From a virus: DNA of 64,000 bases. This document shows, piece after piece, positions 9 through 31,637 of this stretch. Positions within the stretch are counted from its first letter, which is position 1. Each line of letters begins with the position of its first letter. The notes beneath the pieces were generated by a model. The model was not told where the DNA came from, ran no database searches, and saw only the letters and a list, made by a program, of their open reading frames with translations. The stretch covers positions 1 through 64,000 of IMG/VR virus record IMGVR_UViG_3300044977_000094; one strand, given 5' to 3'. Position numbers and translations under genes: made by a program.

Positions 9-98
9 TGATGTGGTGTGCGCTCCGCCGCGCTTGAGTGATATGGAGTGCGCTGCCTATTGCATGAGTGATGTGGTCGCCGTACCATATCGACATGG
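9..98. repeat. Tandem 30-bp repeats upstream of the antirepressor operon
   Basis: TGATRTGG begins at 9, 39 and 69, exactly 30 bp apart. The first two units also share GTGCGCT after the core and TGAG at the end (about 21 of 30 positions match); the third keeps mainly the core. The array may continue left of the window. It lies directly upstream of the first plus-strand gene, so an operator or activator-binding array is the simplest reading. A single TGATGTGGAG copy lies just before the immunity repressor near 28382. Confidence 0.55.
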
Positions 99-27202: not shown

Positions 27203-27639
27203 GACGCGACCGCCATCTGAGCCTCAACCGCCAGCCGCACCAGGCACGCCGACACCTCCAGGGCAGTCCGCGACGACACGTCGGTGAAGTCCGCCAAGTG
27301 CTCGATGTAGTCCGGGCGGCCGTCCGTCCACGGGGCCAGACCCCGCATGTGCAGCGACGCGAACTCCAGCGCCGCAGCCACCACCGGCACGTCCGGCACA
27401 TCCTCCGGCCGCTCGGGGTCCTCGCCGCACGCGATCCGAATCGCCCCGACCATGTCCACCGGCCGGAACTGCGGGTCACTCGCATGCAGGACACCGTGCG
27501 CGTCCGGGACCGCCGGCGGCGCCACGAACTGGCCCTTCGCCAGGCCGTTCCGCTCGATCACATCCGCGGCGACACGGAAGACCGTCGCCAGGTCGATGGT
27601 GGTTCTCGGTTCAGGTGCCAAGATGGTCACGTCGACCAC
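27199..27639 (-). CDS. Hypothetical protein
   Basis: 146 aa, helical, with ATVFRVAADVIERNGLAKG and VVAAALEFASLHMRGLAPW. Similar proteins (a six-helix body with W-T-D/G turn) occur beside recombination genes in actinophages. Function unknown. 81 bases separate it from the excisionase-like gene. Confidence 0.5.
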   Translation of the reverse strand: MVDVTILAPEPRTTIDLATVFRVAADVIERNGLAKGQFVAPPAVPDAHGVLHASDPQFRPVDMVGAIRIACGEDPERPEDVPDVPVVAAALEFASLHMRGLAPWTDGRPDYIEHLADFTDVSSRTALEVSACLVRLAVEAQMAVAS

Positions 27640-27720
27640 CCTTCTCTTGAGATGAATTGGTGCGGGTGGGAGGCAGGCCGTCGGTTCGGGGGTGCGACCC
27701 CGGGCTGGCGGCCGTTGTTT

Positions 27721-27966
27721 TCAGGCCGCGACGCGCTTTGCCTTGACCTCGCACCGCTCGCTGTACTCGCGGATGTGGCGCGGCAGGAACTTGTACGAGC
27801 CGGCGATGACCGTGTAGCCGATCTCGTTGCGCTTGACGAGGCCGAACAGGTAGTTCGGGGAGACGCCCAGCAGCTTGGCGGTCTGTGCGCGGCTGAAGTG
27901 TTGGAGCTCGGCGGCGCTCTCCGCGTCCGGGCCCGGGGGGCTCTTCTTCGTGCGAGGCGCGGTCAC
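27721..27966 (-). CDS. Excisionase-like HTH_17 protein
   Basis: 81 aa, GTG 27966. Winged helix of the MerR/Xis type: FSRAQTAKLLGVSPNYLFGL, then VIAGSYKFLPRHIREY. The size and fold fit recombination directionality factors, and it lies 1.3 kb from integrase behind the Cro-like gene. A plain regulator is the alternative. Confidence 0.65.
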   Translation of the reverse strand: MTAPRTKKSPPGPDAESAAELQHFSRAQTAKLLGVSPNYLFGLVKRNEIGYTVIAGSYKFLPRHIREYSERCEVKAKRVAA

Positions 27967-28169
27967 GACTGTTCCTCTCGATTGATGGCGGCGACGGGCA
28001 CATCCATGGCCCTGGCTATGGCGCGGAGCTGGTCTTCCGTCGCCCCGCGCTCTCCGCGTTCGAGGCGGGAGAGGAAGCTCCGGTCTAGTCCGGTGCGCTG
28101 TTCTACCACGCGAATGCCTAGTTTCAGTGCCGTTCGCAGGGCCCTGATGGCCGTTCCGTTCGGTGTCAC
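27963..28169 (-). CDS. Cro-like XRE regulator
   Basis: 68 aa; almost entirely an XRE helix-turn-helix (LRTALKLGIRVVEQRTGLDR, SFLSRLERGERGATEDQLRA). Divergent from the larger repressor at 28395, the arrangement of a cro/cI switch. First gene of the replication/recombination operon, GTGA overlap with the Xis-like gene. Confidence 0.75.
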   Translation of the reverse strand: MTPNGTAIRALRTALKLGIRVVEQRTGLDRSFLSRLERGERGATEDQLRAIARAMDVPVAAINREEQS

Positions 28170-28394
28170 AGAGCAAATGTAGGCTCACGCGATGCCGCGC
28201 GCAAGGCTTCTCGCGACATGGGTGCACTGTTTCAGTGCATCTGATGCATACCGCATGGTCATGACATACGTGTAGGTGCTCCCAATGACCCCTGTTCTGC
28301 CACCACGGGGCCCTCTAAGAGAGCATTAGGGGCTGGTCAAAAGGCTCAAAGGGGCTCTTCTTGGTTGCGCTGTCATGAGGCATGATGTGGAGCC
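28170..28394. promoter_or_regulatory. Immunity control region between Cro-like gene and repressor
   Basis: 225 bases between divergent regulator genes and noticeably AT-richer. Contains the 17-bp palindrome TGCACTGTTTCAGTGCA (28223-28239), GTCATGAC at 28258-28265, and a copy of the left-edge motif TGATGTGGAG near 28383. No single -10/-35 pair stands out. Likely holds both early promoters and operators. Confidence 0.65.
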
Positions 28395-28898
28395 ATGGAA
28401 CAAGACTGGGGACGTCTGGGTGCGGCGCTGTCCGCCGCCCGGAAGAGCCTGGGCGTCACGCAGGTCGCGATGGCCGAGAAGATCGGCATCACGCGCGGAC
28501 CCCTCCAGGCCATCGAGCGCGGCGAATCCAAGCGCCTCACAAACACGATCGCCGCATACGCCCGGGCGGTCGGCTGGGCCGACGGGTCCGCCGAAGCAGT
28601 ACTCGCCGGCGGTGACCCCGCGCGAGAGCCGGAGGCATTGCCCGCCAGTCCGACCGAAAACGCCGCACCCGCGTACGCCAAAGGAATGCCCCAGCGCGTT
28701 GTCATGGAACTGACCGACGGCGCCGTGCTCGATACAGACGTAATTGACCTGACCTCATCAGGCTCAAGCACCCCGCTGGTACTCGTCGCCAAGGCCCTCC
28801 CTGACGATGCCTCCGACCAGGACAAGCGCGAGATTCTACTGCGCTGGGCCCGCATTCAGAGGCGGGTCCGGGAAATCGTCAACGAGGAACTTCAGTGA
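28395..28898 (+). CDS. Probable immunity repressor, XRE family
   Basis: 167 aa. N-terminal XRE helix-turn-helix at about 8-62 (LGVTQVAMAEKIGITRGPLQ, AIERGESKRLTNTIAAYARA). A variable linker leads to a C-terminal helical part (QDKREILLRWARIQRRVREI). No peptidase S24 domain, so cleavage by RecA-type induction is not expected. Release by antirepressor would fit the two BRO proteins. Confidence 0.7.
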   Translation: MEQDWGRLGAALSAARKSLGVTQVAMAEKIGITRGPLQAIERGESKRLTNTIAAYARAVGWADGSAEAVLAGGDPAREPEALPASPTENAAPAYAKGMPQRVVMELTDGAVLDTDVIDLTSSGSSTPLVLVAKALPDDASDQDKREILLRWARIQRRVREIVNEELQ

Positions 28899-29026
28899 CT
28901 GACTGCCTCGATCGCCGCTTGCTAACCTTTGCTTGAACCCTCTACACAACCTGCACACGGGTGTGGTTCTATCTTCTCCTACCTGCGAGGGTGGCAGCTC
29001 TGCCAGGTAAGGGGGTGTGTGCGTTG

Positions 29027-29245
29027 ATGCGCGCACACGTGGAGGTCGTCCCGTCACTTCCCTGTGGCGGCGAGGTTCTGCACGACGAGGAGAGTGGTCT
29101 CGGGTTGGTCGTCTGGGTGACCGACAGTCACATCACAGCACCACAAGCCGCTGTACTCGAAGACGAGATCAACCGCAAGGCACAGGATCGTGGGCGCCAG
29201 TTGACGGTTGCTGAGGTACTTGAGCTCCTGCCGTTCGTGGCCTGA
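29027..29245 (+). CDS. Small hypothetical protein between repressor and integrase
   Basis: 72 aa from ATG 29027, with AAGGGGG about 11 bases upstream (a TTG at 29024 gives better spacing). N-terminus VEVVPSLPCGGEVLHDEESG, C-terminal helix AQDRGRQLTVAEVLELLPFV. No family recognised. Confidence 0.5.
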   Translation: MRAHVEVVPSLPCGGEVLHDEESGLGLVVWVTDSHITAPQAAVLEDEINRKAQDRGRQLTVAEVLELLPFVA

Positions 29246-29259
29246 CCTAGAACCGCCCG

Positions 29260-29285
29260 GGGCGCGGCGCGGCCGCGCCGCGCCC
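29260..29285. terminator. 26-bp perfect palindrome before integrase
   Basis: A gapless self-complementary GC sequence centred on GCGGCCGC, 15 bases after the small gene and 27 before the integrase start. As RNA it would form a strong hairpin that limits transcription from the repressor side into integrase, or hides the integrase ribosome site. Confidence 0.55.
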
Positions 29286-29311
29286 ACCCGGGGCGTCCAA
29301 AGGAGAGACCG

Positions 29312-30550
29312 TTGGCGTCAGCCCACAAGCGCGACAACTACTGGCGCGGCAAGTACAAGAACGACAAGGGCGTCTGGGACTGGGTCAGCCGGAACGAGGC
29401 CGGCGAGCGCTTCCGCACCAAGACGGCAGCCAAGGCGTACGCCACGAGCCTCGAAGAGAAAGCCAAGAACGGCCACTTCGTCAACCCCAAGAAGGGGCGC
29501 ACGACGTTCGCCGAATGGACAGAGACGTGGCTCGACGCCCTGGACGTAGACGAGGGAAGCGAGCGCAGCTACCGCAGCCGCCTGAACTCCGTGATCACTC
29601 CGGAGTGGGGCAACGTCGAACTCGCCCAGATCACCAACGTCGCCTACAGGGCCTGGGAGAAGAGACTCAACCAGACCTACAAACCCAACACCGTCTCGGG
29701 CTTGGTCAGCCTCTTCCGTACCATCCTCGATGATGCCGTTGTATCCAAGCTGCTCGCCGAGAACCCCGTCCCCACGCGCAAAGCCGCACGACGCGGCCGC
29801 TTCCGCGGGAACCAGAAGCAAGAGGACAAGGTCATTGCCACGCCACGGCAGGCCCTGCTGGTAGCCCAGAACGCCCTCCAGTTGCGCGGGCTCAGCTTCT
29901 ATGTCCAGGTGCTCACGCACGCCTACGCCGGCATGCGGATCGGAGAGGTGGCCGGCCTCCGGCGCGGGGACCTGATCCTCGACGACGCGCCCCAGGGCAA
30001 CAGGATCCTGCTCAGGACGCAGAGCCAGTACCGGGGAGGCAGGCCCACTCTTCTGGCCCCCAAGTACATGAGCACCCGGGATCTGATCCTGCCGCCGTTC
30101 CTGACCGTCCTGTTTCGCCAGCTCCTCGCCTCACACGGCCAGGATCTCGTCTTCACCGCGCCGAAGGGCGGCAGAGTCCTTACAGGGGGCGAGTTCTACA
30201 GCGAGTCCTGGGATCCGATCGTCAACGGAACTCCCCCGCGCCCCAGCAGTCGCGGTCATGCCGCACGCGCCGGCCTGCGACCGGTGATCGGCGTCGAGAA
30301 CATGGTGCCGCACGGGCTCCGCCACTCGATGAAGGTGTGGCTGGACGAGCTCGGGATGCCGCGGATCGTGGTGGAGGAGCGGATGGGTCACGTTATCCAG
30401 GGCAGCGAGGGGGCGTACTCGCACACTACGCTGAAGATGGAGTTGGCCCTCGCGGACGCACTTCAGCGATTGTGGGAAGAGGCTCACGAGGAGGTCGGCG
30501 GAGACTGGGAGTATGGGCCCATCCCAGAGCCGGATGTCCCCGCAGTGTGA
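29312..30550 (+). CDS. int: Tyrosine site-specific integrase
   Basis: 412 aa; TTG start with AAAGGAGAGACCG upstream. N-terminal AP2-like arm-binding part (about 5-60, DNYWRGKYKNDKGVWDWVSR), core-binding SAM-like domain (about 65-155), catalytic domain (about 175-390). Catalytic residues visible: R209 (YAGMRIGEVAG), K251 (APKYMSTRD), H334-x-x-R337 (HGLRH), H360 (MGH) and nucleophile Y369 (GAYSH). Catalyses integration at the attP that follows directly. Confidence 0.95.
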   Translation: MASAHKRDNYWRGKYKNDKGVWDWVSRNEAGERFRTKTAAKAYATSLEEKAKNGHFVNPKKGRTTFAEWTETWLDALDVDEGSERSYRSRLNSVITPEWGNVELAQITNVAYRAWEKRLNQTYKPNTVSGLVSLFRTILDDAVVSKLLAENPVPTRKAARRGRFRGNQKQEDKVIATPRQALLVAQNALQLRGLSFYVQVLTHAYAGMRIGEVAGLRRGDLILDDAPQGNRILLRTQSQYRGGRPTLLAPKYMSTRDLILPPFLTVLFRQLLASHGQDLVFTAPKGGRVLTGGEFYSESWDPIVNGTPPRPSSRGHAARAGLRPVIGVENMVPHGLRHSMKVWLDELGMPRIVVEERMGHVIQGSEGAYSHTTLKMELALADALQRLWEEAHEEVGGDWEYGPIPEPDVPAV

Positions 30551-30564
30551 CCTGTCTTCTTGAT

Positions 30565-30881
30565 TGTCCCTCACATGTCCCAGTTGATCTTCGTTTGAGC
30601 GCATCTGCCGTCGGCCGCCCGGGTGAAAGTCTGGAGCCCCCAGGGTCTGGACCTGCGGGTTTGGCCTTGGGGGGAGTTGCCCCTGGAGCGCTCTGGCGCC
30701 TTGCTAGGGTGAGAAGCCACGTACATCATGCAGATCTTCGAAGGCACCAACCAGATCCAGCGCATGGTGATTTCGCGTGGCCTAAGCCGCAGGTGAGGCG
30801 GGTACCCGAAGCATTTTTCGTACCGCCGGGGACATGTTTCGTACCACTGCGTGAACCATGATCATGTCCCCTCCATGTCCC
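30565..30881. other. attP: Predicted attP: host-gene core with flanking arm-type repeats
   Basis: Core: the 3' end of an acyl-CoA dehydrogenase gene (30722-30796). Left arm: TGTCCC at 30565 and 30576. Right arm: TGTCCC at 30865 and 30876, the same 11-bp spacing and exactly 300 bp from the left pair. Additional TTTCGTACC direct repeats lie at 30816 and 30837, and an inverted GGGACATG at 30829. Position right after int, homology to a host 3' end, and paired arm repeats are the hallmarks of a lambda-type attP. Confidence 0.75.
30722..30796 (+). pseudogene. 3' end of an acyl-CoA dehydrogenase gene (attachment core)
   Basis: The frame reads YIMQIFEGTNQIQRMVISRG and then LSRR plus a stop at 30796. 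This is the signature C-terminus of acyl-CoA dehydrogenases (xQIFEGTxQIQRxVIAR). No start or upstream domain exists, so it is not a gene here. Integration into the host gene would swap this tail in and keep the host protein intact. Confidence 0.8.
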
Positions 30882-30923
30882 GCAATCCGCACCTCGTCAC
30901 TGGTTGCTCCTGCGCGATAACAG

Positions 30924-30957
30924 TCAGCCCCCCTCTGGCGTCCCAAAGGGGGGCTGA
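30924..30957. terminator. Hairpin downstream of attP
   Basis: TCAGCCCCCCT (30924-30934) pairs with AGGGGGGCTGA (30947-30957), 11 bp with a 12-base loop. It would stop transcription out of the attachment region, and in a lysogen transcription from the host dehydrogenase gene. Confidence 0.6.
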
Positions 30958-31343
30958 TGCGTGTCAGGCCCCCTGCGAAGGTGGCATACCGGAAAGCCCG
31001 ACACGATCAAGGCCGCCACCGCAGGGGGGTGGCGGGGCTACCCGGCCGCCACGGGTGAGGGTTAAGACGGCGTCAAATTTTGGCATATGCCAAGGGCGGG
31101 AACATGGGGCCGCCATCCCCTGGGGTGGGGTGCGCGGCGGTCTGGAGGTGCCGGGTTGCGCGGCATGGAGGCGAGGAGGTCAGCGGCCGTGAACTGCGGT
31201 TAACCCGGTCATGCGTTCGAACCTATCGGTGGCGGAGACATCTATCAAGGCAGTGATCACAGCGGACCCCTTCCACTCTCGCGCGCACATTTGTACCACC
31301 GGGTGGTACGGACATTTGATCTTGTAGGTTCGAGCGTTATGCC
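30958..31343. promoter_or_regulatory. Gene-free region with two perfect palindromes
   Basis: No convincing coding frame. Two sites stand out: TTGGCATATGCCAA at 31080-31093 and GTACCACCGGGTGGTAC at 31293-31309. The second is flanked by ACATTTG direct copies at 31288 and 31312 and lies 35 bases before the XRE gene at 31344, so it is the best candidate operator for that regulator. The first has no neighbouring start and may serve another regulator. Confidence 0.55.
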
Positions 31344-31637
31344 ATGTCAGCCGCCGACCCCGCCGACCCCTGGGTCATACGCACCCGCGAGCAGATCGGC
31401 GACAGGATCCGAAGCTTCCGCCGCAGCTCCCGCATCACCCAAGACGAACTCTGCGAAGCCGTCGGCGTCGACCGCAAAACCATCTCGCGCTGGGAGAACG
31501 GCCACCATCCGATGAACGTGGACGACGCCGCCCGCATCGCCCGGGCCCTCGCCGTACCACTCGCATGGCTCTTCGGCGACGACTGGGCGCAACCCAGTAT
31601 CGATGCCACTCCACCTGCCCCACCTGATGCCCCGTAA
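31344..31637 (+). CDS. XRE-family regulator
   Basis: 97 aa. Helix-turn-helix at about 17-75 (IGDRIRSFRRSSRITQDELC, VGVDRKTISRWENGHHPMNV), C-terminus Pro-rich. Typical short phage/chromosomal XRE protein, likely autoregulated through the palindrome upstream. Lies in the accessory island between attP and lysis genes. Confidence 0.75.
   Translation: MSAADPADPWVIRTREQIGDRIRSFRRSSRITQDELCEAVGVDRKTISRWENGHHPMNVDDAARIARALAVPLAWLFGDDWAQPSIDATPPAPPDAP

What the first reader, a model, noticed from the sequence alone, without database searches (positions are those of the whole stretch)
30565..30881. attP embedded in an acyl-CoA dehydrogenase 3' end with mirrored arm repeats
Seen: right after the integrase gene the sequence encodes the C-terminal ~24 residues of an acyl-CoA dehydrogenase with its stop. 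Two TGTCCC pairs with identical 11-bp spacing flank it, exactly 300 bp apart, plus TTTCGTACC copies at 30816 and 30837. Known: tyrosine integrases often use 3' ends of host genes and restore them; protein-coding genes are used less often than tRNA genes. Inference: attB lies in a fatty-acid-oxidation gene, and integration rewrites its 3' end.
Basis: partly seen in the sequence, partly recalled or inferred. Interest (0 to 1): 0.75.

Follow-up and report, generated by a model that had tools for sequence, protein, structure and literature searches.

The report
Phage attachment site in acyl-CoA dehydrogenase end
This is the spot where a virus of Streptomyces-type bacteria inserts itself into the tail end of a fat-burning enzyme gene while carrying a replacement tail so the gene still works; related viruses support the arrangement, use several other target genes, and insert in either direction.

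Summary
At 30722-30796 the window encodes the last 24 codons plus stop of an acyl-CoA dehydrogenase (ACAD), 171 bp after a tyrosine integrase. The two TGTCCC pairs (11-bp period, 300 bp apart) are the only such pairs in the 175-kb record. Related integrases (32-56% identity) in Streptomycetaceae genomes and IMG/VR carry the equivalent ATCTCCC x2, 11-bp-period pair right after int and, where the other side is readable, usually a matching pair beyond the core, so these are integrase arm sites. Genome G045 holds a lysogen of a relative in the same kind of ACAD gene (86-bp core, attL/attR recovered); others sit in two further ACAD paralogues, in sodN, or upstream of a TetR gene. The ACAD and sodN targets share a dyad, GATC-N5-(G/C)ATCTWC, at the 5' edge of the gene fragment; this is the likely crossover zone (window about 30725-30749), and the rest is the phage-borne replacement 3' end. 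The window is the unintegrated form (attP). Its core points the same way as int; most ACAD relatives point the other way, but sodN relatives show both polarities. The exact host was not found. Classical lambda-type integration at a target not found in the papers searched.

The parts
27721..28227 (-). HTH_17-like protein, candidate excisionase/directionality factor; relatives near int in G464, G577, G508, G054 and L096
   Evidence: Pfam HTH_17 E=1e-3, below cut-off; tblastn synteny. Function inferred.
28395..28898 (+). XRE-type regulator, conserved neighbour upstream of int in relatives
   Evidence: HTH_3; homologues next to int in G045, G100, G054, G464, G508, G577, L096
29312..30550 (+). tyrosine integrase, 412 aa, TTG start; R209, K251, H334, R337, H360, Y369
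   Evidence: Phage_integrase PF00589 E=1e-6, phrog_1 E=1e-39; catalytic residues conserved in the 23 aligned sequences (H334 in 22)
30534..30540 (+). single extra ATGTCCC inside int 3' end, possible additional arm site
30565..30581 (+). P arm: TGTCCC-N5-TGTCCC, two integrase arm-type sites 11 bp apart
   Evidence: with the right pair, unique in 175 kb; equivalent pair after int in most of 22 relatives (null)
30718..30743 (+). core-type site CACGTACATC-ATGCA-GATCTTCGAAG; predicted crossover about 30725-30749, spacer 30728-30732
   Evidence: 5' boundary of host identity in G045; 25-bp minimum shared core in G577 and common dyad in targets
30722..30796 (+). phage-borne replacement 3' end of an acyl-CoA dehydrogenase gene (24 codons + TGA)
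30816..30824 (+). TTTCGTACC copy 1, possible Xis/RDF site
   Evidence: only two copies in 175 kb, 21 bp apart; relatives carry other phased repeats at the same place. Function inferred.
30829..30835 (-). inverted ATGTCCC, possible extra arm site
30837..30845 (+). TTTCGTACC copy 2
30858..30881 (+). P' arm: ATGATCATGTCCC-N5-TGTCCC
   Evidence: same motif in the G064 phage and G045 attR; scan with it recovers integrase loci
30924..30957 (+). terminator-like hairpin (15-bp arms) downstream of the replacement gene end
   Evidence: inverted repeat I2
31344..31637 (+). small XRE-type protein just right of attP; its homologues lie near the far att site of prophages
   Evidence: HTH_3; positions in G464, G508, G577, L092, L098, L100

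Best explanation
30534-30881 is the intact attP of a temperate phage. The 412-aa lambda-type tyrosine integrase binds two pairs of arm sites (TGTCCC x2, 11-bp period, one pair each side) with its N-terminal domain, and a core dyad at about 30718-30743 with its catalytic domain. It recombines that core with the matching dyad (GATC-N5-GATCTTC) near the 3' end of a host acyl-CoA dehydrogenase gene. The phage then supplies the last ~20 codons (MQIFEGTNQIQRMVISRGLSRR-stop), so the host gene keeps a complete, slightly altered C-terminus, and the displaced host 3' end lies next to int at the other junction. Shown: anatomy, conservation, and att junctions of relatives in host genomes. Inferred: binding, strand exchange, and the identity of this phage's own host (Streptomycetaceae likely).
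For: ACAD 3' end once in the record. G045 lysogen: full 389-aa ACAD (PF00441, PF02770, PF02771) whose 3' end lies within about 130 bp of a 49%-identical integrase, plus a truncated second copy; 86-bp exact core starting at ATC-ATGCA. Same-polarity lysogen G464: truncated SodN end beside int, complete sodN (TIGR02753) 39.2 kb away, 40-bp core. G508 (76-bp core, 35.9 kb) and G577 (25-bp core, 35.7 kb). Arm pairs: most of 22 relatives have ATCTCCC x2 with 11-bp period by the int end, 19 of them matching at 12-14 of 14 positions, against a maximum of 12/14, seen once, in 4000 random 200-nt windows; blind scan with the P' motif gave 9 IMG/VR contigs, 5 with an int homologue by the site. Arm letters agree on the two sides of one element: TGTCCC in the window, TCTCCC in G045 and G064, TCGCGC-like in G508. 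Catalytic residues intact. Phage genes lie on both sides of the core, so attP, not attL/attR; homologues of flanking gene 31344-31637 lie near the far att in prophages.
Against: No host genome or lysogen of this phage itself was found: best host matches are 89-98% over 46-64 bp, largely expected from the conserved ACAD motif. The 3' half of the fragment (30772-30796) matches no host closely. L102 shows no arm pair and L101 a diverged one; L219, the other sense-polarity ACAD element, shows no TSTCCC pair. No biochemical data.
Confidence: 0.93

Rival explanations
1. The segment is a lysogen junction (attR) with real host sequence, i.e. the record is an integrated prophage.
For: In sense-polarity lysogens (G464, G577) a truncated gene end also lies beside int.
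Against: In the window the right side of the core carries the P' arm and phage genes collinear with the related phage B; no other ACAD copy in the record.
Confidence: 0.03
2. The ACAD fragment is a chance or decayed host gene piece unrelated to integration, and the repeats are regulatory operators.
For: XRE regulators flank the region and could bind repeats.
Against: Most relatives with the same integrase have the same arm pairs, and many have a target-gene 3' end at the same place, with attL/attR in host genomes.
Confidence: 0.03
3. A sub-question: the TTTCGTACC repeats are further integrase arm sites rather than excisionase/RDF sites.
For: They lie on the P' side of the core with a 21-bp (two-turn) spacing.
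Against: They do not resemble TSTCCC; relatives have different phased repeats at the same place, more like sites of an element-specific accessory factor.
Confidence: 0.25

Closest known systems
Mycobacteriophage cluster K1 attP (CrimD, Adephagia; PMC3203893)
   Same: Tyrosine integrase; pairs of arm-type repeats on both sides of the core; arm sequence differs between phages with changes in the integrase N-terminus
   Different: K1 core lies in the tmRNA gene on the 5' side of int, and its two pairs are inverted to each other; here the core is an ACAD 3' end on the 3' side of int and the pairs are direct
PAISt / IntSt of Streptomyces turgidiscabies (PMC4057263)
   Same: Tyrosine recombinase, site at the 3' end of a protein-coding gene (bacA) in Streptomyces, att just downstream of int, palindromic crossover
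   Different: 674-kb conjugative island; target bacA; homology of IntSt to this integrase not tested here
M. abscessus prophiT49-3 attB-21 in FadE (PMC9934374)
   Same: Prophage attB in an acyl-CoA dehydrogenase gene
   Different: Serine integrase, inside the gene (around position 280 of 1140), said likely to inactivate it; no 3' end replacement
icd/tRNA-type sites with replacement sequence in attP (discussed in PMC10111431)
   Same: attP carries a replacement gene end so the target gene survives
   Different: Target gene and integrase family differ; that paper calls shared attB the unifying principle of integrase clades, whereas this family switches targets and polarity

Membership tests
Tyrosine (lambda-type) integrase | Catalytic R-K-H-R-H-Y | tested here: met
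   R209, K251, H334, R337, H360, Y369; conserved across the 23 aligned sequences, H334 in 22; PF00589, phrog_1
Tyrosine (lambda-type) integrase | Arm-type sites flanking the attP core | tested here: met
   Paired sites on both sides, conserved in relatives
Tyrosine (lambda-type) integrase | N-terminal domain binds the arm sites | not testable with these tools
   Only the agreement of arm letters on the two sides of each element was seen
attP with target-gene replacement | Core identical to a host gene 3' end and regenerating it | tested here: inconclusive
   Met in relatives G045, G464, G508, G577; own host not found
attP (not attL/attR) | Phage sequence with arm sites on both sides of the core | tested here: met
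Excision module | Xis/RDF gene | tested here: inconclusive
   HTH_17-like gene 27721-28227 below Pfam cut-off, conserved near int
Strand exchange at the ATGCA spacer | Cleavage positions and overlap length | not testable with these tools
   Only bounded to about 25 bp by G577

The most novel reading that the evidence does not exclude
One integrase family reads a nearly symmetric dyad (GATC-N5-(G/C)ATCTWC) that ACAD paralogues and sodN encode as I-x-x-I-(F/Y) in their last ~25 codons. That shared motif lets the family hop between these genes, and near-symmetry lets attP polarity flip relative to int and the arms: sodN is used in both polarities, ACAD genes in both (window and L219 sense; the rest antisense). 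ACAD 3' ends are also used by other tyrosine integrase clades, making them an overlooked actinobacterial integration hotspot.
Probability: 0.6. Interest if true: 0.55.

Novelty: new member of a known kind. Interest (0 to 1): 0.42.

Why it matters
ACAD and sodN 3' ends as tyrosine-integrase attB sites were not found in the papers searched; they are conserved, multi-paralogue sites in Streptomyces and could serve integration vectors that keep the target gene intact. The set of related integrases with known targets, arms and polarity is a ready natural experiment on how integrases change attB, how arm sequences covary with the N-terminal domain, and what fixes integration polarity.

Tried and rejected
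The search for related loci with the integrase in genome contigs found nothing (peptide seeds too specific); INPHARED and plasmid hits were only distantly related, about 22-38% identical; blastn of the att region and megablast of 20 kb against phages: no match. A degenerate ACAD pattern ending in RMV/ATGGT found nothing in viral contigs, because the IMG/VR attP cores use other ACAD paralogues; a dyad-based pattern then found 19 stretches. 151 genomes of the family of Actinomadura sp. KC345 gave no close integrase. Exact host gene: sought in two draws of about 390 Streptomyces/Streptomycetaceae genomes; best 93% over 54 bp or 98% over 46 bp. attR rather than attP was considered and rejected (P' arm and collinear phage genes on the right). 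The sodN-type dyad pattern in viral contigs mostly hit unrelated sequences. Polarity could not be rooted on the tree.

Full report
OBSERVATION. The window is bases 1-64000 of a 175,260-bp virus record. The integrase ORF ends at 30550. From 30722 the plus strand reads YIMQIFEGTNQIQRMVISRGLSRR followed by TGA at 30794-30796, the C-terminus of an acyl-CoA dehydrogenase. TGTCCC-N5-TGTCCC lies at 30565-30581 and 30865-30881. In the full record, both strands, these are the only such pairs, and TGTCCC pairs exist at no other spacing from 6 to 21 bp; simulated sequence gives 0.005 pairs per 64 kb. TTTCGTACC occurs only at 30816 and 30837. The pairs are direct repeats, not mirrored.

RELATIVES IN HOST GENOMES. 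Searches in two draws of about 390 Streptomyces/Streptomycetaceae genomes found integrases 40-56% identical. In G045 a 49%-identical integrase (C224:62287-63492) converges on a full ACAD gene, 389 aa with all three ACAD domains. The gene's 3' end is repeated exactly for 86 bp on contig C236, behind unrelated upstream sequence: a lysogen with attL and attR. Identity starts at ATC-ATGCA-GATC, as the window's fragment does. G179 and G506 sit in a second ACAD (IYTIFEGTSEIQR), G508 in a third (KITQIYEGTNQVQR; 76-bp core, 35.9 kb prophage), G284, G010 and G189 at sodN (antisense), and G577, G439 and G464 at sodN (sense). Five (G054, G554, G591, G412, G498) lie upstream of a TetR-type gene (TetR_N in G054). 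In G464 the truncated SodN end is beside int and a complete sodN lies 39.2 kb away, sharing a 40-bp core. That is the outcome predicted for the window phage, whose core has the same polarity.

ARMS. Most relatives have two ATCTCCC-like words 11 bp apart at the int end: 19 of 22 match at 12-14 of 14 positions, while in 4000 random 200-nt windows 12 of 14 was reached once and more never. The window itself scores 11 because all its words read TGTCCC. L101 (G508) has TCGCGC-like words on both sides, so the two arms of one element agree with each other. On the far side the word is joined to ATGATCAT in the window, G045 attR and the G064 phage. An IMG/VR scan for ATGATCATSTCCCNNNNNTSTCCC gave nine contigs, five with an integrase homologue next to it. 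These are therefore integrase arm sites by conservation; binding is untested. Between core and P' arm, relatives carry element-specific phased repeats; TTTCGTACC holds that place in the window, so an excisionase/RDF role is plausible but inferred.

CORE AND CROSSOVER. The ACAD and sodN targets share, in gene sense, GATC-N5-GATC or a close variant: ACAD1 AAGATC-ATGCA-GATCTTCG, ACAD2 GCGATC-TACAC-GATCTTCG, ACAD3 AAGATC-ACCCA-GATCTACG, sodN AGATC-GACAA-GATCTTCT. G577 shares only 25 bp between its junctions, AGATCGACGCCATCTTCTGGGAGAC, so strand exchange is within that stretch, equivalent to about 30725-30749 here. Everything from there to 30796 is then the replacement 3' end. In the window the left half-site is phage-specific (CACGTACATC).

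ATTACHMENT STATE AND MODULE. Genes on both sides of the core are collinear with a second phage in the same record, the P' arm is present, and there is no host gene: this is attP. Homologues of 31344-31637 lie about 2 kb inside the far att of prophages G464, G508 and G577, and homologues of 27721-28227 and 28395-28898 lie next to int. The integrase has the full catalytic set.

POLARITY AND TARGET SWITCHING. A dyad scan of IMG/VR found further ACAD-core integrase loci: L217, L220, L223, L224 and L229 antisense, L219 sense. On the integrase tree the window pairs with L101 (support 90/88) and lies near L219 and L102 within the ACAD group (92/96, order there open); sodN-sense and sodN-antisense form separate groups. 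Both polarities therefore occur for both target kinds. Other tyrosine integrases, poorly or not matched by this one, lie near ACAD 3' ends too (L215, L221/L231, L225/L227, L222); their type was judged by eye from the protein sequence, not by a profile search.

LITERATURE. Paired arm sites with specificity varying with the integrase N-terminus are known in mycobacteriophages (PMC3203893). A tyrosine recombinase using a palindrome at a Streptomyces gene 3' end is known (PAISt at bacA, PMC4057263). The only ACAD attB found is serine-type and mid-gene (PMC9934374). No paper found in the held open-access library describes ACAD or sodN 3' ends as tyrosine-integrase sites; subscription papers were not searchable.

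LIMITS. The phage's own host was not identified (best host matches 98% over 46 bp, 93% over 54 bp), and no bench data exist.

Noticed in passing
whole record G000 (window 1-64000 plus L003-L008): The 175-kb record holds two collinear related phages (A about 1-87.7 kb, B about 87.7-175.2 kb; roughly 36-95% protein identity), each with its own terminase, portal and tape measure genes: a heterodimer, a tandem or an assembly chimera.
   Followed up: partly
window 27639-31344 versus L005 (record 118988-122568): At the same place phage A has the tyrosine integrase/ACAD attP cassette and phage B a 489-aa large serine integrase (phrog_95, E=2e-74): an integration-cassette swap between otherwise similar phages.
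   Followed up: partly
window 65-95 and record 175230-175260 (L008): A 31-bp exact direct repeat near both ends of the record; the first 95 bp are 82% identical to the last 97 bp.
   Followed up: no
L089, L090, L091 integrases: sodN-targeting integrases carry an inserted LysM-like domain (PF01476, E=5e-8 and 3e-5 for the two tested) inside the catalytic domain, an odd place for a cell-wall-binding fold.
   Followed up: partly
L215, L221, L231, L225, L227, L222: Other tyrosine integrase clades also lie beside ACAD 3'-end cores; L225/L227 (one contig) hold a full ACAD gene and a truncated copy.
   Followed up: partly
L087, L103-L106: A sister clade integrates upstream of a conserved TetR-family gene, close to a CGATCCCCCGYRTCGCC-like sequence.
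   Followed up: no
G064 C24 / IMGVR_UViG_2867332405_000001 (L088, L093): A 56-kb contig carrying a complete sodN-type attP with both arm pairs.
   Followed up: partly
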